Positions 38,964-64,000 of a stretch of 64,000 nucleotides of DNA are shown here, in pieces (the first letter of the stretch is position 1; each line of letters opens with the position of its first letter). Both the position numbers and the translations under genes were made by a program. The stretch is from Hypholoma sublateritium FD-334 SS-4 (Eukaryota > Basidiomycota > Agaricomycetes > Agaricales > Strophariaceae): contig KN817627.1 of assembly GCA_000827495.1 (NCBI GenBank), forward strand, positions 62,001 to 126,000, written 5' to 3'. The notes below the pieces were generated by a model. The model was not told the DNA's origin. It did not search any database and saw only the letters and a list, made by a program, of their open reading frames with translations.

Positions 38964-41253
38964 CTACAAATACATGGTACGCAGTGTCATTCCGTGTCGT
39001 TTCAATTCTTCTTTCGGAATTTGATACGAGCTATCGTTGTGGCGAATGACGTCAAACGTAATCGGGCGAATGGTCGACAATCTCGTAAATGAAAAGTCTT
39101 CTGGGATATCCCAATCGTCCACTGGTTTGTTGGGGCGCAGCAACATCGCAAAGCAAGGCCCGGTCTTTGGCAAGAGGACCGCGGTGGCTTTGTCCGCAAT
39201 GTTAAGCACAGCAAATACGTGGACATCAGGCTTTGCGGTGCCTGTGCCACTGCACGCTGCGCTGTCGAGTATCCTAAATGGACCACGCTTCCAGGTACCG
39301 CTCCCACCAGGATAGTCGATCACCACCGAGGTGGCAGGGACATTGGCAGAATAATCTCCTTTGGGCTTTCGCCGATAGAGAAGGTTCCTCCGATCCTGTT
39401 CTATGCTGGGCAGCAGCAGAACTGAGACGCGGAGGCCCAAGTGCGACAAGGTAATTGGCGTAGACGGGGGGTAGAAGCTCACGTCGCCCTTTGCAGACCA
39501 AGCGTACGATGTCGGGCTCCGCGGAATCAAGGCACTGGGGCAGACGTTTGCAGCTGATGGAAGGCCGATTCGATCCACCGAGGGCACGGAAGTGTCGCGG
39601 GCGCCCAGCCCCCAGTTCGCGATCTCGAGCACGGAGGAGGTGCTGGAGTTTAAGATTTCCTTGACGAGGCGGAAGAACGCGTGATCCGCGCCCTCGCCGT
39701 AGCCGGTGGGCATGCTGACATTGAAGATGCCCATGAGTGAGTAGGCCGTGTCCTCCTCGCGCGTGACGCTCCGCTGCGCCGCCCACTGCATCTTGCGCCA
39801 GATGGGCACTCTGTTCAGCGAGCGCGGCGAGCCGGTGATCTCGCTCTGGCTGAAGCCAGTCGCATCGCATATCTTGGACAGCAGCTGCATAGAGCTTGAC
39901 GAGCCCCCCGCTTTATCAGAAGCCCACACGTTCTCGTTCTCGGCTACTGCTGTCCACTGCGCGGTGTAGAACCTGACGATTCGCGGCGCGTAGAGCTCCT
40001 GGAGGGTCCAACTGCGCGTGAACCACTTGTCTTTCTCCATGTTGTGCAGTGATTGCGTCTCCGCGAGGTACGCAATACATACGTCGGAGCGCTGGTACCA
40101 CTTGTACATAGACCGTATTGACTCGTCGAGCTCGGTGCTGCTGTCTTTGTTAATGCAGACGGTATCCATCCAGCCCAGGCGCATGGCGTACTTCCTGGCG
40201 GCGACCGCGCAGAAATTTCGCAGCTTGGCATATCCCGGTGCGCCATACCCCGGAGAGCTTGCGTTGCACGCAGTGAAGCTATTCCAGCCGGAATATGTCA
40301 CCTCGGCGCCCGGGAGCCAGGTGTGCGACAGAATGGCGTATCTCCCGTAGCTGTGGTTCGCGAGGAAGTGACGGATCGTGCGCCGAGGAACTAGGTGAGC
40401 CGGCCCGAAGCTGTGGACATATGCGTTGAAGTTCTGCTGGACATCGAGGGAGATGCACTGGAGAAGGTGCTGTCTTTCAACGAGCTTGATTTCGGTTCCG
40501 TCGGAGTTGAACGTGAGCAAGCGAATAGGCATCTCGTTGAACACCCAGTCGCGCGCTTCGTCCATGATTCGCTTTAATAGCTGCTGGCGTTCTGATTCCA
40601 ATATCGTTGTCCCGATTATTTTCAGAAATACCAAGGCGATTAAATTCTCACCTGTCTCTTGGTGGAAGAGGAACCGTCTCATGGCCAACGTTCCCTGGGC
40701 GTCCATTCCAACAAGCGAAGGGACGGTAGTATCTGGGGATGCAAGTATCATACTATTTACTTGGGCCATCCTCGGATACTCATACATTACATACCTTCAA
40801 AATTTCCGGAGTCTGCAGCCGCTCCCTTGTCTTCACGCCGATCTGCCAGCGGGCGCCGAACAAGAGACAGGGCAAACCTCTCGAGCGCGGCTAGCAGATC
40901 TCGCGCTTCCGCCGTGAGGGCAGACTCCTCACGATCGGAGCCACCCACAGGACGGAGTTTGTCCTCCTCGATGGATCGTTCGCCAGCGCGTTCCTCTGCG
41001 GGAGCGCATACAAGCTGAGCGGCAGCATCGTTCCCTGCGATGGCGTCGGCGCTTACCTGGGGCCGCCGCCTTGCCCCCGCTCTGGATCAGGGGTATGATG
41101 ACGCTTGCGAGTGCGGCGACGAGCGCGTGTCCTGCACCGGGGCTTTCTGTGCGGTCCGCCAGGCGTGAGTTGCTGTCTCTGAAGTTGTGCGCTCGTACCT
41201 TTCCCAGACGAGGGGCCGTTGATCGCTGCATTTTGCGGGGAAGAACGCTCCAT
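38964..41253 (-). CDS. HET-domain protein 1, 684 residues
   Basis: HET proteins act in fungal self/non-self recognition and programmed cell death after hyphal fusion. Five exons (41253-41199, 41146-41057, 40995-40795, 40732-40652, 40591-38964) give 684 residues, and every intron is in phase 1. Exon 2 encodes the shared N-terminal segment GHALVAALASVIIPLIQ; exon 3 holds DLLAALERFALSLV. The HET core starts near residue 227 with YAILSHTWL, then LGWMDTVCINKDSSTELDES, YLAETQSL and FTRSWTLQELYAPRIVRFY. After the core come TREEDTAYSLMGIFNVSMP and a beta-rich C-terminal half ending RHGMTLRTMYL. The open frame happens to run through introns 3 and 4, but splicing restores the match to HET gene 2. It lies opposite in direction to its two relatives at the right end and has no GATase beside it. 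Confidence 0.9.
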
Positions 41254-54315: not shown

Positions 54316-55455
54316 ATGCCCTCACCGCCCGCCCCGTCGCCCACGCGCATCGCACTCCTCATCTGCGGCGACCTCACGGGGCCCGCGCTCGAGGCGAACG
54401 GGAACTACCTCCAGGTGTATACCCGCTTTCTCGAGGACACGGCGCCTGGTCCGTTCGTGCTGACGCCGTTCTACGTCGTGACGAGCGAGGTGTACCCCGA
54501 CCCTGCGATGTACGACGCGCTGCTGATCACCGGATCCGGTGCGTCTTCGTCTTGTCCTGCGTCCACCAGCGCCTTCGGGCCATCTCTGTGGTCCCGCTGA
54601 TCTGCTTCTGCTTATCACGCATGGTCCGCCGGTCTGACGCTCGCTGACGGTGCATTGCAGCTTCCTCGGCGTACGACGCCACCCCGTGGATCGTCAGTCT
54701 CGCAGCCTACCTCGCGCGCGTCGTCGTCGATGCGCCGGCGCTGCGCATCGTGGGTGCGTCTCTCCCCCTACTCGTTATCGTTATCGTCCAGCGCCGCTGA
54801 CAGGGCGCAGGCATCTGCTTCGGGCACCAGATCCTCGCGCGCGCGCTGGGTGGCGCGTGCGTCCCGAACGACGGCTGGGAGGTCGGCCCCACGCGCGTGC
54901 AGCTCACGCCGCTTGGCGCGCGTGTGTTCGGCCCTGCGGATGGCGGCGAGGAGGAAGGGGAGATCGTGAGTTGCTTTGTCTCTTCGTCGCTTTTTGTGCG
55001 CGTTCGCACGCTTCTCGTGCCCGGCACGCCTGTGCCCACCACGGACGGGGTGCTCGGCGCTGACCTTGTGCTGATCCACCACGCAGGTCATCCAGCAGAT
55101 GCACCGCGACCACGTACCCGCGCTCCCGCCCGGCTGTGTGCTGCTCGGCGCGTCCGCGCGTGCGCCCGTACAGGGCATAGTGCGCTTCTATGCGCCCGAG
55201 GGTGCTTCTCCCACCACCACCACCGCCGCCACCGATGACACCGCGCCGCTCCCCCCGATCCACATCCTCGCGGTGCAGGGCCACCCTGAGTTCGCGGAGA
55301 GCGTCGTCGCGCCGCTCGTTGCGACGCGCGCGGCGTCGGGCGCGATCGACGGGGCGACGGCGGCGGCGTACGAGGCGCACGGACGCGGCGTGCGGGACGA
55401 CGGGCGCGGGCGGGTCGCGCGCGCGGTGTGGGGGGTGATGCGCGGTGAGATGTAG
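54316..55455 (+). CDS. Class I glutamine amidotransferase-like protein, 279 residues
   Basis: Four exons (54316-54538, 54661-54753, 54811-54965, 55087-55455) give exactly 279 residues. It is a stand-alone class I GATase domain: IALLICGDL at the N-terminus, the oxyanion strand YDALLITGSG, the nucleophile elbow GICFGHQILARALGG with the catalytic Cys, and LAVQGHPEF with the catalytic His-x-Glu. Such proteins (similar to GMP synthase-like GATases, for example those hydrolysing gamma-glutamyl peptides) occur alone in many fungi; the natural substrate here is unknown. Location is probably the cytosol, as no signal peptide is seen. It lies 620 bases before HET gene 2. A decayed copy lies at 61975-63110, again before a HET gene. 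Confidence 0.88.
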
Positions 55456-56075: not shown

Positions 56076-58245
56076 ATGATACTTCTAGGGGCATCGGTCG
56101 AGGACAGGGTTTTGGGGAAAGGTGCGAGCGCGTTCCCCAGTGGCCCAGTCCAGACTACATCTCATAACCAGTGGCGCCGTGTCAGACAACACAGGGGTGG
56201 GTCAGGCGCTCATCACGGCTCTCGCCGACTTCATCATTCCATTGATACAGGGGGACACGACGGCGCCAGGTGAGCATCGGTACCACTTCCAGCAGCAAAC
56301 ACCCCAACGCTCACTGTTGGTACAGACCCCTCACGCGCGGTGGCGGAGGATCCGCACCGTTCTGTGTATGGCGCCGTTCACCCCGGGTCTGGACTCACGA
56401 TTGAGGGACAAGAGTTACTCGTCGCGCTGAAACGTTTTGCTGTGTCTCTCGTGCATACCCCGGAAGGTCAGCAGAAAGAGCAAAACTCCTCAGAAATTTC
56501 AGATAAGCTTCAGGAGGTGTCCTCGGGTTTCGGTCATCCCGCGACCGTGGACGTTGCCAAATGGGTTGAACCGGACACTTCTACAGATATTCAGCTGCTT
56601 GGCGGATGGGATGGGAATATGTGGGAAGCTAGTGGCCTGGGTCTTATCAGCTCGGGTAAGTGTTGCTGTTTACCAGTGACACAATGGTAGTGCTCAAATC
56701 ATTTGCACAGAAACGGTAAACTCGAGATACCACCGCCTGATCAAGGTTATCATGGATGACGCACGCGACATGGTTTTCAATACAATGCCTATCCGCCTGC
56801 TCATGTTCGACGAGGAAGGAAATGGAATTAAACTCGTCGAAAAATCGGAAGTCCTGAAACATATATCTCTTGACCTTGCAACCTTTGATTTTAGGGAGGC
56901 TACATCCAGCTTCATCCAGGACAACGGAGAATTTCGCCCGCTTGCATGCAGGCGGTTTCTCTCCCGCCACAAATTTGGGCAATATGCCATCTTGTCCCAC
57001 ACTTGGCTTCCGACCGGCGAGGTTACCTATTCCGATTGGCTCAGTCGCTCGTTCGACACTACGTCTCCTGGGTATGTCAAGCTTGCAAATTTCTGCAAGG
57101 TAGCCGCGGTCCATTATGGTTTGCGCCTGGCCTGGATGGATACTGTCTGTATCAACAAAGAGAGCAGCGCCGAACTCGACGAGTCGATCCGCTCTATGTT
57201 CAAATGGTACAAAGGAACCAGAGTCTGCATCACGTATCTGGCGGAAACGGCTTCGCTGGACGTCATGGGCAAAGACAGGTGGTTCACGCGCGGCTGGACG
57301 CTCCAGGAACTCCTCGCTCCAAGTTGTATCAAGTTCTACACGGTAAACTGGACAGCAATATCTGACATTCCTGCTTATCACTGTGACAAATCAAAGCTGT
57401 CTCCTCTAGTATCCAAAATATGCGGTGCGACTAGCTTGAGCAAGGAAGAACTGTTCCATTCTCCCTATCTTGATCACATTCCAATCTGGCGAAAGATGCA
57501 GTGGGCATCCAGCCGAGAAGTCACGCGCGAGGAGGACGCCGTGTATTCACTCATGGGCATATTCAACGTCAGTATGCCGACAGGATATGGTGAGGGCTCG
57601 GAGCACGCATTCCTTCGTCTTGTCAGGGAGATTCTGAATTCCAAATTGACATCTGTGTCCAAGCTGGAGATAGCAAACTGGAAAACCTCCTCTAAATTCC
57701 TTTCGGACGCTGCTTCGCCCAGCGCGCTCATCCCCAGAGACCCACGGTCGTATGTGCGTTTGTCTGCAAATCGCAGAGTACACTTTTATCCCCCATCCTC
57801 GCCAATTACGCTGTCGCACCTGGGCCTCTCCGTTCCAGTGCTCCTGATGCCGTCCATTCAATTTGCGGGGACGTACCGCGTACCTTCTTCCCTGAAAGGA
57901 GATTATTCTGCCACTGCCCGCCTCGCGGGGTACACATACAAAATCCTTGACGGTACTTTGTTTAGTGATGAAAGTCCCCGCGATATCTGTATTTTTGCCG
58001 TGCTCAATATCGCGGACAAATCCACCGAGGTCCTCCTACCAGAAAATGGCACTTGCTTGGCGATACAACTACTCCCCCAGCATCCGGTCGATGGATGGAC
58101 GATACCGGAAGGTCTTGAGTTCAAACGAAAATACGACATGCACCCTGTCACATTTGACATAGTCTGCCACAACGGCAGTTCGGTCCGCATTCCCAAAGAC
58201 GAACTGGACCGCCATGGAATTACACTTCGTACGATGTATTTGTAG
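56076..58245 (+). CDS. HET-domain protein 2, 664 residues
   Basis: Four exons (56076-56121, 56186-56269, 56326-56655, 56711-58245) give 664 residues with all introns in phase 1. Exon 1 is MILLGASVEDRVLGK; exon 2 is the shared segment GQALITALADFIIPLIQ; exon 3 holds ELLVALKRFAVSLV and an acidic stretch. The HET core begins near residue 245 with YAILSHTWLP, then LAWMDTVCINKESSAELDES, YLAETASL and FTRGWTLQELLAPSCIKFY. TREEDAVYSLMGIFNVSMP and a beta-rich C-terminal half ending RHGITLRTMYL follow, as in HET protein 1. Known HET proteins trigger cell death when partners of different type meet; here the partner is unknown. The gene appears intact. Confidence 0.92.
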
Positions 58246-59321
58246 TATTTGAACACCATGGTAATATAAGCAGATAACCGTGGGGTGAAGTGAGAACGGA
58301 AACCGAATGAATAATACCGTTTGACTTGTTTTAGAGGGCGAAATAAACGCGAGATACTTCTTCACTTTTTTTTGGCACTGCACAAGGTGGATGCTCAATG
58401 GGAAGTGACCGGCGAAGAACCACCGCGCTTCCCTCTTATGTTTCCCGCGTCGTTGGGTCATCACCAACTGATTTAAGTTGGAAAGACATCCGGGTCGTCC
58501 CCACCTGCGCTGTACAGCGCACCGTCGGTGTGTTTGCCTCACCTTGCTGACGACTACCTGGCCGCTCAAGAAGCAGGTGTCCCTTGACATGCCGTTGGGA
58601 CGCGCGTTGTGGGCTTGCAGTAAGCGTCCGTCCCGGCTCGGGCTATCCATTTCTCAGTACGTTTTGCGAATGTTTACATACATAGTTCTTTGTCTTCTAT
58701 TATTCGCTTAAACTCCCACACAGCCAGTCTGAGGCTTTGTAACGCCTTCATTTCCTGACAAACAGCCCAGCGAGTGATTTCAATGAGATGAGGCATGAAT
58801 AGCTTCGCTTCACGTCGGCTTACTGTAAGCCTATTGATGTCAGTGCTTTCACTTCCCTACTTTCACAGCGTCTCACGCTCCCTCGGTAGCGATTTCGACT
58901 GACTCGTCTCGGCGAGATTATTGCTTCGATTTCATTTGCATCGAAAGTAGATCGAAACGGGGACGGCCCGAAAGATTACCGTGACTGGGTCTGAAAACTC
59001 CATGACCTCTGAATCCAAGTCCCTTGTCCGAACAGTGCCTCAAGTTTGTACGCATGCTACCATCTCACCTGTTCGTCCTTCTAACCTTTCATTTATTTGT
59101 TTCCGCTTGCTTATACCGATGCTGCTCTTCGATGCCCTTCCCAAACTGATTTCTATCTTGACATAAGCACGCCAGGCTCCAAAAAATAGTAGATCATTTC
59201 GAACAAAAGAATTCGCGCGTCTATATTTGCTCGTAACTCATGGTCTTATAGTAAGAGGGCTCTATAAGTAGAGAGAAAATAATTCGACTGAACAACCAAG
59301 CACTACAGCCATCCCTCGAGT
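58246..59321. other. Intergenic, no gene seen
   Basis: About 1.08 kb between HET gene 2 and the flavin monooxygenase. Small open frames at 58478-58711 and 58981-59166 have no protein-like features. A TATA-like CTATAAG near 59260, about 60 bases before the ATG, may belong to the monooxygenase promoter. Confidence 0.5.
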
Positions 59322-61226
59322 ATGTCCCAGAACGACGACGCCACTACTTTCACTGCCAATTACACGAGCCCAATCCATGAGCCAAAGCATCTTAAAATAA
59401 TATGCGCCGGTGCTGGAGCATCTGGCTTGCTATTAGCATACAAATTGCAACGCTCATTTGACAACTTCGAGCTCGTGATATACGAAAAGAACGAAGACAT
59501 CTCCGGAACCTGGCTCGAGAACACGTATCCCGGGTGCGTCAATTTCTCTGTCACCCCTTCCACCTACAGCTTAACCGTTACCTTGTGAACTACAGATGCG
59601 CTTGTGATGTTCCTGCACACATTTACACCTACTCATTTGAGCCCAACCCAAATTGGTCGTCGGTCTACTCTGGTTCACGCGAAATCCGTGACTATTTTTT
59701 GTCCTTTGCGAATAAATATGGACTCGACAAGTACATAAAGCTTCAACACCAAGTATCTGGAGCTGTTTGGAACGACAAGACAGGCCAGTGGGACGTCGAC
59801 ATCACGAACCTCGAGAACGGATCAGTGATCCACGACTCGTGTGCTATTTTTATCAGCGCCGTCGGTGTTTTGAACGCCTGGAAATGGCCGACGATTCCCG
59901 GACTGCACGATTTCAAAGGTCCTGTTCTCCACACGGCGAGGTGGGATCCGTCAGTCAACCTTGAAGGTAAACATGTCGGCTTGATTGGAAATGGGTATGT
60001 TTCATATCAATTTTTTTATAAAATAATCAGTGCATGGTGTTAACAGCGATATTTAGATCCTCAGGCATTCAGGTCCTTCCCGCAATTAGTCCTGTGGTCA
60101 ACAAAGTTACCACATTTATCCGCTCTTCGACGTGGGTGTCGCCAACGCGAGGCTTTGAGGCACGCATGTATCCAGATGAAGAACGTCAGAAATACGCCAC
60201 GGATCCAGAGGCTCATCTCGCGTACCGCAAGACGCTGGAAACAAGCATCAACGCGCTCTTCTCAATTTTTATTGCAGATTCTCCTGCACAAAAGCAGATC
60301 TCCGACGCCATGAAAAAGGCGATGCAAGATAAACTGCAGATCTCTGACGACCTCCAAAAGCTCGTCATACCTACGTGGCCCGTGGGTTGTCGACGACTCA
60401 CGCCTGGAATCGGTTATTTGGAGACGCTTGCATCCGACAAGGTGGAGGTTGTGTTCGGAGAAATCGCGAAGATAACCCCGGCGGGATGTGTGTCCACCAC
60501 TGGCCAGGAACATCCTATTGACGTGTTGATCTGCGCGACCGGGTTCGATACGTCATTCAAACCTCGTTTTCCGTTGATTGGCCTGGGCGGAAAAAATCTT
60601 CTAGACGCTTGGGCGAGTGAGGCACAGTCGTATCTCGGAATAGCTGTGCACGATTTTCCCAACTATTTTATGTTTGTTGGACCAAATAGCCCCAGTGGAA
60701 ACGGACCGCTGATTGCGCCTATGGGTGAGTGTTGATGAACTCAATGGAGAAGTACACTCACGAGATTCCTGCAGAGGCGCAAGCCGACTACATGCTCAAA
60801 ATGATCAATCGTTGGCAGACAGAGAATATCCACAGCTTCAACCCGAAAAACGAAGCCGTGCAAGATTTCATCGCCTTCAAGGACGAATTCATGAAGGCCA
60901 CCGTTTGGCAGCATGAATGCAAATCCTGGTACAAGAACAACAGCACGTCCGGAAAGGTGACGGCTCTCTGGCCCGGGAGCTCACTACATTATCTGGAGGC
61001 GATTGCCGACCCTCGATACGAAGACTGGGACTTCAAGTACCGAGGAAATCGGTTTGCGTTTCTCGGGAACGGGCGTTCTCAGGTCGAATCAGACAGCACG
61101 GCCGACTGGGCTTATTACCTGCGAAACGAAGATGATGGGCCATACCTCAGCCGCATGAAGCAGACTAAAATTGTCGCTAGGTCTGGAACCGTAGCTTCCG
61201 AGGCGAGAACTTCCCTTCAATTTTGA
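59322..61226 (+). CDS. Flavin monooxygenase, Baeyer-Villiger type, 576 residues
   Basis: Four exons (59322-59533, 59596-59994, 60057-60724, 60775-61226) give exactly 576 residues. The FAD motif is [39 protein letters not shown] is typical of the family; the Baeyer-Villiger fingerprint FxGxxxHTxxW is present as FKGPVLHTARWD; the NADPH motif GLIGNGSSG is split by intron 2. ATGFD and GPNSPSGNGPL follow. Such enzymes insert oxygen next to a ketone or oxidise nitrogen or sulfur atoms, using NADPH and O2, often in secondary metabolism or detoxification. An apparent frameshift near 60730 is really a 50-nt intron (60725-60774). No biosynthetic core gene is next to it. The substrate is unknown. Confidence 0.92.
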
Positions 61227-61970
61227 TTCCGGTGTTTCTATCAGGGCTTGCGGTGATCACACCTTCACGGATGAACGACGAAATCCAACGCGACAGACTA
61301 TATATACTGCCTTCGATATGTTTGAGATTTGTACAGCTCATTCATTTGCGTCGTGTCCAATTATATTCCGTTTTCTTTGATTTTTCGTGATCCCTAGGCT
61401 GTGATTATTCACTTCATCCTTTCGCAACGTGGATGAGAGACTCGCAAAAAGCCTCCATGTCCATATGATAAGCTGGGTGAATCGTCTGAGGGCATCCGAA
61501 TATTTTCTCAAAATATTCCCGTCGATGTTGGGTTCTTTATCCTAACATGTATCCAGTGCAGGAGAACATTGCGAGGACATCGACCATTGTTCTGACAATG
61601 TTCAGTGACAGACTCAAGACGGGCCGAGTCAGCGGCAATGGCCGGAATTGATGGCATCATTCAAAAGTAGAAATACTTTCCGAGTTCGTTGCAACGTGGA
61701 ACTTTTGCTCAGGCTTGACTTTGCCCTTGTCATGTATGTTGCGACTCTTCCGGCCAGCCGCCTACGCGTACCACACCCCGGAGAGGAGAGTGTCGCCTCT
61801 GACTCCCGCCTCGTGCTCGGCATATACTCTGCACATTGGGTGCGTCGGCCCCCCCATCCGTTCGTTCTGGTCGCTGATGTTGCAGACGGTGCACAGACGT
61901 ATCCGCCGGCCACTGGTGTCAGTACTGAGCATGGCGCGCATTTCTGGTGAATATTAAGAGGGCAGATATG
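61227..61970. other. Intergenic, no gene seen
   Basis: About 740 bases after the monooxygenase. A 100-codon open frame near 61650-61950 has no recognised features; the 5' part of the GATase pseudogene could once have lain here, but I see no match to GATase exons 1 and 2. Confidence 0.45.
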
Positions 61971-61974
61971 TATT

Positions 61975-63110
61975 TGTGCAGCTGAAGCGGCTCTGCGCGT
62001 GCGTGTTTTCTTCGGGGGGTGAGATCGTGAGTCGGCTTTCTTTTCTTCCTCTCCTTTTCTTTGCTACCTCCACTTCCATCCATCCTCTAAGTTCATTAAA
62101 TTATGCTCTGTTCTATGGGGTCAGTTTTCTACCTGGAGATACGTCTGTCCCGCACACGCGCTGGCACGACGGCAGGCGGTCAGGCGCGTGTGCGCAGATT
62201 TGGCTGGTCATACGCGCCGTCCCGCGCGTGTTCCACAATTGCGCTGCATGCAGCCCCCTTGCGCGCGCCTGGCACACGTTAGAACAAAAACCAACGGCTC
62301 GCTAACCCTGTCCATCGCACGTAGGTCACGCAGCGAATGCACGACGACGACGTGTCCGCTGTCCCACCCGGCTGCGCCCTGCTCCGCGCGTCCGCGAGGG
62401 GGCCGTTTCAGGGCTCGGTGCGCTTCTATACACCGTGTAGTCCCCCAGCACCACCGATGACCACGCCATCGCCACCGATATCACGGACAATGTGCACACC
62501 TCCATCAATGCGCGCGCGATGTCAACCGACTCCCGACCCCGCAGCGGACGACGCGTAGCAGATCACCGGAACCGGCGTGCCTTTTTCCCTTACGTCATAT
62601 GTTGCTCTCTTCCCGCTAGCTCTCTCGGCACACAACAATACATCATGAGACGTAGCCCCTGTCGTGTATCTTGCTCGCCCCCCCCCCTTCCGCCCCCCCG
62701 CCCTGGATCGTATCTTTCTCCCCGTGACATGACCCCGGGATTGCGTGCGCTATTCAAACGTGCACTGCCGCTACTGGGCGACGACCAGTCGACGACAGTC
62801 AACGCCCCGTAGCGTTAGCATGCACGGAAACACACAGTACGCGGCGGCCCGGACGGCTTCTATACCGCCAATGACAGACCTCACCCTCGATGACTTCACC
62901 ACCAGCACCACCGATGCGCGCACCGATAGCGCATACATGCGCCTCCTCCTGCTTATCTACATCCCTGCGGTGCACGGCCGCTTCAAGCCTCCCCGAGATC
63001 GCCGACGTCGTCGTTGCCACCTGTGCAGTGTCTAGTGCGATTGATGCGCTCACGGTAGCCGCGTTTGAGCTGCACGGTGGCGGGGCGGATCGCGCGGGAG
63101 GTGTAGGGGG
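61975..63110 (+). pseudogene. Decayed copy of the glutamine amidotransferase gene
   Basis: Three blocks match the intact gene at 54316-55455 in order. Bases 61975-62025 read VQLKRLCACVF...GGEI and end at a GTGAGT donor, as exon 3 does (VQLTPLGARVF...EGEI). Bases 62325-62440 (MHDDDVSAVPPGCALLRASA, FQGSVRFYTP) match the start of exon 4. Bases 62945-63080 match its end (IYIPAVHG, then VVATCAVSSAIDALTVAAFELHG in another frame). The catalytic QGHPEF is lost (VHGRFKPP), frames shift, stops occur, and exons 1-2 with the Cys elbow are missing. It lies about 480 bases before HET gene 3. Confidence 0.8.
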
Positions 63111-63591
63111 TGATGCCGTGGTCCGGGGATTATGCACTGTGCAGGCGGGCGGGAGGAATAGTGAGGTCGGGGTAAAGGCTGATGCTTGTACCGATGCAAG
63201 GATGCACAAAGTGCCACTTTGTATGCAGTCGTACACGCAGGCGGAGAGGGGTGATGATAAGATAATCTCTGTTCATGGTGGACACTGATTTACTTTCTCG
63301 AATTTTCGCCGCTTGCCAGATTTTGTAATAAACAATATAATATTTCAACGCAAGAGGCAGTGTGCATCGCCTTTGCGTTTCAAGTACACCGGTCCACTCA
63401 AGGTGTGCAAGTCGGGCGTGCTGTAAAACAAGTACGAGTGCCACGTATGCGCTTGCATTCCACCATATTTGAGCACCCTCAGCTGGTGGGTCATTGACGC
63501 TGCGCTCGCTATCCCGCGCGAAATATTTACTACCTTAGCACCAGTACTCCCTGAAGGAGATCAACAGTCGAAATATCAATCGGCTGACAAG

Positions 63592-64000
63592 ATGCCAGAG
63601 GTTTTAGAGGCGAAGAGCACCCCAGTGGACAGCATGTTTGGAAAAGGTGCGAGAACCATGCGTCGGTCCAGGTATTATCTCAAAGCAACGTGTGGTCAGA
63701 CAACCGTAGTGTAGGCCAGACGCTCATCACGGCGCTCACCAACTTCATTGTACCTTTGATACAGGGAGATACGACAGCGGCAGGTGGGTATTTGCGTCAC
63801 CTTCACTGGCAAGGGCTTCTGATGCTTAGTTGTCTCTGCACAGGCATTGGGGCCGACGCCGCATACACCGTTCGTAACCTGACCGCGGATGAACCCGCCC
63901 CTTCTGTTGACGCCATCGTTCGCTCCGAGTCTGGGCCTACAATGGAGGCACAAGATCTGCTTAAAGCGCTGAAACGATTTGCTGAGTCCCTCGTACATTC
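63592..64000 (+). CDS. HET-family protein 3, N-terminal part (cut by the window end)
   Basis: Exon 1 (63592-63646, MPEVLEAKSTPVDSMFGK), exon 2 (63700-63783, GQTLITALTNFIVPLIQGD) and the start of exon 3 (from 63844, with DLLKALKRFAESLVH) match the first three exons of HET genes 1 and 2 in sequence, length and intron phase. The HET core itself lies beyond the window, so the family name rests on the shared N-terminus. Exon 2 is the same length as in HET gene 2 (84 nt). Confidence 0.75.

What the first reader, a model, noticed from the sequence alone, without database searches (positions are those of the whole stretch)
56076..64000. An undescribed N-terminal module shared by three local HET-family genes
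HET genes 1, 2 and 3 begin with a tiny exon (55, 46, 55 nt), then an exon of 90, 84 and 84 nt coding for GxxLxxALxxxIxPLIQ, then an exon with LLxALxRFAxSLV. All introns are phase 1, so the first exons form a swappable cassette in front of the HET core. The hydrophobic helix-like segment could be a membrane-active or self-assembling death effector or a recognition part; I know of no named domain with this pattern. Seen: sequences, lengths and phases. Inferred: function.
Basis: partly seen in the sequence, partly recalled or inferred. Interest (0 to 1): 0.78.

Follow-up and report, generated by a model that had tools for sequence, protein, structure and literature searches.

The report
Paired helix tail on HET proteins
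A large family of mushroom cell-death-type (HET) proteins carries the same short helix twice in its otherwise floppy front end; the pair is real and kept by selection, no known domain describes it, and it is probably a docking or assembly arm for the domain behind it.

Summary
The window is Hypholoma sublateritium FD-334 SS-4. Genes 1 and 3 carry the same small exons, although their public models differ at the 5' end.

(1) Its two segments are one motif twice (profile-profile P 2.4e-9; 0 of 200 column shuffles reach its score), one copy per exon. (2) The pair is not local: at least 34 of 63 HET genes of this class in the genome carry it, as do Pholiota HET proteins.

Both helices are as constrained as the HET core (pN/pS 0.38 and 0.28; core 0.36; linkers 0.81 and 0.71). 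They look like amphipathic alpha-helices without net positive charge; no Pfam family matches them above its cut-off in 10 of 10 proteins.

The swappable-cassette idea is not supported: 35 of 36 genomic matches of helix 1 belong to HET genes or remnants, and module and core diverge together (Mantel r 0.72).

Best reading: a family-specific docking or assembly arm on a TIR-like effector, of interest because basidiomycete NLRs are reported to lack HET domains. Function is inferred; distribution beyond Hypholoma and Pholiota was not established.

The parts
56076..56121 (+). Gene 2 exon 1 (46 nt, ends in phase 1)
   Evidence: whole model identical to public protein P0001
56186..56269 (+). Gene 2 exon 2 (84 nt, phase 1-1), holds helix 1
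56200..56250 (+). Gene 2 helix 1 (R1), GQALITALADFIIPLIQ
   Evidence: AF2 helix 18-40; pN/pS 0.38
56326..56655 (+). Gene 2 exon 3 (330 nt, phase 1-1): helix 2 and variable linker
56406..56456 (+). Gene 2 helix 2 (R2), GQELLVALKRFAVSLVH
   Evidence: AF2 helix 69-86; pN/pS 0.28
56711..58245 (+). Gene 2 main exon: HET core and C-terminal part
   Evidence: PF06985 36.6 bits, cut-off 22.5 (on the enclosing frame); weak TIR-like matches
41199..41253 (-). Gene 1 exon 1 (55 nt); not so in the public model P0010
41057..41146 (-). Gene 1 exon 2 (90 nt) with helix 1 at 41132-41082
40795..40995 (-). Gene 1 exon 3 (201 nt) with helix 2 at 40906-40856
40652..40732 (-). Gene 1 exon 4 (81 nt), linker
   Evidence: present in P0010
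38964..40591 (-). Gene 1 main exon with HET core
   Evidence: PF06985 40.2 bits (on the enclosing frame)
63592..63646 (+). Gene 3 exon 1 (55 nt); not in the public model P0006
63700..63783 (+). Gene 3 exon 2 (84 nt) with helix 1 at 63714-63764; not in P0006
63844..64000 (+). Gene 3 exon 3 (357 nt, runs past the window) with helix 2 at 63948-63998
   Evidence: rest read from L037

Best explanation
The N-terminus of this HET family is a largely disordered tail carrying two copies of one short amphipathic alpha-helix (R1 about residues 18-40, R2 about 68-88 in gene 2), each on its own phase 1-1 exon, tethered by a fast-changing linker to a TIR-like HET domain. I propose that the paired helix is a bivalent protein-docking or assembly arm: by binding itself or a partner it brings HET domains together or to a trigger, and so controls when the effector domain acts. 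Shown: the sequence motif, its two copies, their conservation, and their near-exclusive place before this HET family in this genome at the sensitivity used. Predicted: helix. Inferred: that they bind protein, that they control HET, and that HET here causes cell death.
Against: No partner was found. No listed NACHT place lies near a motif match, though single-sequence queries are weak. AF2 confidence on the helices is only about 48-76 by block and no contact map was given. 3 of 30 held loci of this class have no recognisable module, so HET can do without it. A conserved proline sits inside R1 (48 of 56 sequences), unusual in a plain packing helix. Conservation alone fits other helix roles equally well.
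Confidence: 0.45

Rival explanations
1. Intramolecular brake: the helices fold back on the HET core (or on the helix at residues 156-178) and keep it inactive until displaced.
For: Module divergence tracks core divergence (Mantel r 0.72), as expected if they touch; the module was found almost only in front of this core.
Against: Shared descent alone gives the same correlation (the little-constrained linker also tracks the core, r 0.66); AF2 gives low confidence to the tail, which suggests no stable docking.
Confidence: 0.2
2. Membrane-active helices: R1 (and perhaps R2) inserts into or coats a membrane, as the N-terminal helix of HeLo/MLKL does, and is part of the killing act.
For: R1 is strongly hydrophobic (mean 0.75 on the Fauchere-Pliska scale) and amphipathic, close to the N-terminus, with a conserved proline.
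Against: Mean net charge -0.3 to -0.6; the lipid-binding discriminant exceeds 1.34 in 0 of 36 and 0 of 41 (formula and threshold are recalled). No HeLo-type Pfam match. The helices sit on a TIR-like domain, a fold that elsewhere acts by NAD chemistry.
Confidence: 0.18
3. Targeting or degradation tag: a localisation or sorting signal, or a binding site for quality control, not part of activation.
For: Short helices in a disordered tail are common in such signals (general knowledge).
Against: Not cationic, so not a classical mitochondrial presequence; two copies and selection across a large family argue for more than an address label.
Confidence: 0.12
4. Amyloid signalling motif of the fungal NLR kind (HRAM, PP, sigma or an agaricomycete variety).
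For: R1 of one subfamily ends in hydrophobics followed by G-D, and HRAM-like features reported for agaricomycete NLRs include a hydrophobic pattern and a C-terminal G[DN] (PMC9815663, passages and section 29).
Against: Helical periodicity, with the 170-degree moment above shuffles in only 1 of 36 and 4 of 41; a proline inside R1; the effector's N-terminus rather than its C-terminus; no listed NACHT place near a motif match.
Confidence: 0.05
5. Artefact: chance reading frames or wrong gene models.
For: Public models of genes 1 and 3 differ at the 5' end.
Against: Exact match of two models with public proteins, reverse-strand control 1 of 30, pN/pS 0.38 and 0.28, conservation in Pholiota annotations.
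Confidence: 0.02

Closest known systems
HET domain proteins (Pfam PF06985) outside NLRs, e.g. TOL, PIN-C, HET-6, BH
   Same: HET core above the curated cut-off; large copy number
   Different: BH has HET at the very N-terminus with its recognition domain behind it (PMC10890737, passages); here a tail of about 150-180 residues with a duplicated helix precedes the core
TIR effectors with an accessory assembly part (SARM1 with SAM, SPARTA TIR-APAZ)
   Same: Weak fold resemblance of the HET core; proposed control by assembly
   Different: Here the accessory part is two short helices in a disordered tail, not a folded SAM or an APAZ/Argonaute partner (features of SARM1 and SPARTA recalled)
HeLo / HELL / MLKL-type death effectors
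   Same: An N-terminal hydrophobic helix on a death-type effector
   Different: No HeLo-type Pfam match, two tethered helices rather than a four-helix bundle, no net positive charge
Fungal amyloid signalling motifs (HRAM, PP, sigma, PUASM)
   Same: Short conserved motif in a disordered tail of an effector; a double HET-s motif occurs on some HeLo effectors (PMC9815663, passage)
   Different: Alpha-helical periodicity, N-terminal place, no matching NLR found

Membership tests
HET domain family PF06985 | Profile match above the curated cut-off | tested here: met
   36.6 and 40.2 bits against 22.5; above it in 10 of 10 homologues; only about profile positions 1-91 of 146 aligned in the best stretch
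HET domain family PF06985 | Induces regulated cell death | not testable with these tools
   Known for some ascomycete HET proteins (PMC12881547 and PMC10890737, passages); no assay here
TIR fold | TIR-like alpha/beta fold of the core | tested here: inconclusive
Fungal amyloid signalling motifs | Same motif on an NLR N-terminus and on an effector | tested here: inconclusive
   Nearest listed NACHT place 47 kb from a motif match, but the NACHT list is a lower bound and single-sequence queries have limited reach
Fungal amyloid signalling motifs | Beta-arch type sequence, not helix | tested here: not met
   Alpha moment above shuffles in 35 of 36 and 41 of 41, beta moment in 1 of 36 and 4 of 41; helices in both models. 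Prediction only
HeLo / HELL / Goodbye-like domains | Pfam profile match in the N-terminal region | tested here: not met
   No such family listed up to E 10 in 10 of 10 proteins (HMMER filters drop most matches above about 0.1)
NLR (NACHT/NB-ARC) proteins | Nucleotide-binding domain in the same protein | tested here: not met
   Only HET above cut-off in 10 of 10 proteins

The most novel reading that the evidence does not exclude
The twin helix is an activation code of its own: an alpha-helical, non-amyloid assembly motif through which stand-alone TIR-like HET effectors of mushrooms are recruited or polymerised in trans, filling the place that NLR fusion and amyloid motifs have in ascomycetes, with the fast-changing linkers and paralogue expansion tuning who pairs with whom.
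Probability: 0.2. Interest if true: 0.8.

Novelty: new variant of a known kind. Interest (0 to 1): 0.52.

Why it matters
[quoted passage not shown] in the table of a 2025 review the HET row reads ND in the last two columns, which in other rows hold in-vitro work and PDB codes (PMC12881547, passage). Basidiomycete NLRs are reported to lack HET domains (PMC9815663, passage), so their HET effectors seem to need some other control. A short, duplicated, selected helix on at least 34 of 63 such genes in one mushroom is a concrete and easily mutated candidate for that control. It also shows that gene models which start in exon 3, as the public model of gene 3 does, lose half of the module.

Tried and rejected
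Swappable cassette: rejected at the reach of these searches. Helix 1 queries gave 36 distinct places: 31 have a same-strand HET match 0.8-1.1 kb downstream, 1 has one 2.9 kb downstream, 3 (C72:196199, C72:52477, C238:2265) are followed by a HET start or HET remnants when read by eye, and 1 (C28:20708) has helix 1 and part of helix 2 but no HET core seen on its strand in the 1.3 kb read. Helix 2 queries gave 31 places: 29 with HET within 1.5 kb and 2 (C72:195948, C238:2022) that belong to two of those remnants. A consensus helix 2 of Pholiota type found nothing, which shows the limited reach of single queries.

Restricted distribution: not claimed. One search returned only the protein itself, but local scoring shows that P0003, P0004, P0006 and P0028, present in the same database, would score E below 1e-20, so its candidate filter had missed them. 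Named hits are Hypholoma and Pholiota only; the best 120 of 4030 are listed.

Fold search of the whole model with Foldseek: nothing at E 0.001 or below. PDB sequence searches with the helix profiles gave 3 matches each, over 10-13 positions; the best, E 1.2e-4 to a covalently connected cytochrome c555 trimer over 11 positions with no stretch passing on its own, was taken as chance. Pfam in 10 proteins: besides HET, weak matches below cut-off to TF_AP-2, Sporozoite_P67 and DUF6545 in or beside the tail of one protein each, and DUF3256 in one core, taken as chance. Column rotation was meant as a control for the R1-R2 match, but it keeps most columns in order and still matches, so it is not one; the column shuffles and the reversal are.

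Gene models of L021 and L022 failed at the last intron (stops) and were dropped from phase counts; L032 has one phase 0 intron in my model. A first pN/pS estimate (helices 0.26-0.39, stretch behind helix 2 0.81-0.83) took the linker at fixed offset without gaps and in subfamily B ran partly into the next intron; it is replaced by the gapped codon alignment. Rows dropped: 68 of 120 homologues went into A1, of which 44 have both helices ungapped; helix profiles used 36 of 36 and 41 of 47 non-redundant copies; A4 used 18 of 30.

Novelty in print: searches listed no paper whose title or abstract describes such a tail, and passages of five papers mention none; no paper was read whole, and only open-access PMC papers were searched.

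Full report
What was checked. The window is contig C110, bases 62001-126000, of a 46 Mb genome. Of the 12 models, nine stay open with only phase 1 introns (W1, W2, L037, L023, L026, L027, L030, L036, L042; 31 of 31 introns); L032 stays open with one phase 0 intron of four; L021 and L022 failed. Public models of genes 1 and 3 disagree at the 5' end; their shared exons are then supported by homology and selection, not by annotation.

One motif twice. Exon 2 of gene 2 carries GQALITALADFIIPLIQ and exon 3 GQELLVALKRFAVSLVH. Profiles from 36 and 41 non-redundant copies match each other over 23 columns with P 2.4e-9 and score 29.2; the best of 200 column-shuffled controls scores 12.9 and the reversed profile 5.0. 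The two exons therefore look like an ancient duplication of a helix-coding phase 1-1 exon; convergence onto one helix type is not excluded.

Family-wide, not local. The genome has 75 HET matches (a lower bound); setting aside the 12 best, which match nearly the whole profile, 63 remain, matching mostly positions 1-91 as the genes here do. I could hold 30 of these 63 (genes 1 and 2 from the window, 28 fetched, gene 3 among them). Helix 1 is present in 24 of 30 by one degenerate scan plus three by other evidence, helix 2 in 27 of 30; L028, L035 and L047 show neither; the reverse-strand control hits 1 of 30. Searches with single peptides add seven loci not held, two of them (C38, C33) on weak matches of E 0.009 and 0.047 at the expected distance, so at least 34 of 63 carry the module. 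A stricter pattern found it in 17 of the 28 fetched loci of this class and in 0 of 12 of the other class. Among the 120 best homologues, annotated proteins of Pholiota conissans and Pholiota molesta carry the same pair; in the alignment of 68 proteins the pair stands out as two islands at about residues 18-40 and 68-88.

Selection. In a gapped codon alignment of seven Hypholoma genes (W1, W2, L037, L023, L026, L027, L030), pooled pairwise pN/pS is 0.38 for helix 1 and 0.28 for helix 2, 0.81 for the linker between them, 0.71 for the linker to the core, 0.71 for the start, 0.60 for the pre-core helix and 0.36 for the HET core. A cruder estimate gave 0.26-0.39 for the helices in two subfamilies of nine genes each. 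The helices are thus held about as tightly as the HET core, which speaks strongly against chance frames.

Nature of the helices. AlphaFold2 predicts helices at 18-40 and 69-86 in the Hypholoma protein and at 19-37 and 52-73 in a Pholiota protein, with block pLDDT of about 65-76 and 48-61 inside tails that are mostly below 50. The hydrophobic moment at 100 degrees exceeds that of shuffled sequences in 35 of 36 and 41 of 41 copies, while the 170-degree moment does so in 1 of 36 and 4 of 41; mean net charge is -0.31 and -0.56. This looks like an amphipathic alpha-helix with a protein-binding rather than a lipid-binding character, and not amyloid-like. No Pfam family other than HET reaches its cut-off in 10 of 10 proteins; weak matches to TF_AP-2, Sporozoite_P67 and DUF6545 (E 0.11-1.1) touch or adjoin the tail in one protein each and agree on nothing.

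No sign of shuffling. Of 36 helix 1 places in the genome, 31 have a HET match 0.8-1.1 kb downstream on the same strand, against about 0.1% expected by chance; of the other five, one lies 2.9 kb upstream of a HET match, three are followed by a HET start or HET remnants, and one is a fragment without a visible HET core. At least 88 NACHT places are listed, and the nearest to any helix match is 47 kb away. Across 44 proteins with both helices, module distance and core distance correlate (Mantel r 0.72, P 0.0005; the linker gives 0.66), as for joint descent. Single-sequence queries have limited reach, so a divergent copy elsewhere is possible.

Novelty. Eight open-access searches listed no paper that describes such a tail by title or abstract, and passages of five papers mention none; no Pfam family covers it. 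It is a new accessory variant within a known family. How far it extends beyond Hypholoma and Pholiota could not be settled: of 4030 homologues only 120 are listed, and the N-terminal searches had poor candidate retrieval.

Noticed in passing
window 62325-63084: Broken remnant of the glutamine-amidotransferase-like gene that lies intact before gene 2 (about 54316-55455): two tblastn pieces of 53% and 45% identity, and a 112-nt DNA match of 77%. Gene 2 and gene 3 with their upstream neighbour look like a segmental duplication (the gene name is recalled from the sequence).
   Followed up: partly
window 59322-61226: Flavin monooxygenase / Baeyer-Villiger-type gene (name recalled, not searched) lying between the two duplicated HET units.
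   Followed up: no
G000 C158:59257 and C158:61463 (near L025): Helix 1 and helix 2 of this HET gene are 2.2 kb apart instead of about 0.2 kb, as if something had inserted between the two exons.
   Followed up: no
L050 (G000 C72:194600-196320): HET gene with both helices interrupted inside the HET core by sequence that reads like a retroelement gag (only read in frames, label recalled).
   Followed up: no
P0001 columns 101-107; Pholiota-type proteins P0121-P0127: A third, beta-strand-like element (about I-E-V-D/E-L followed by acidic residues) some 12-18 residues behind helix 2 in many Pholiota copies; weak in Hypholoma (a short strand).
   Followed up: no
P0122: A 184-residue annotated Pholiota molesta protein with the helix pair but no Pfam domain: a stand-alone module or a truncated gene.
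   Followed up: no
G000 C30:133068-133505 (-) and C30:137511-137789 (-): A NACHT place and a HET place about 4 kb apart on the same strand.
   Followed up: no
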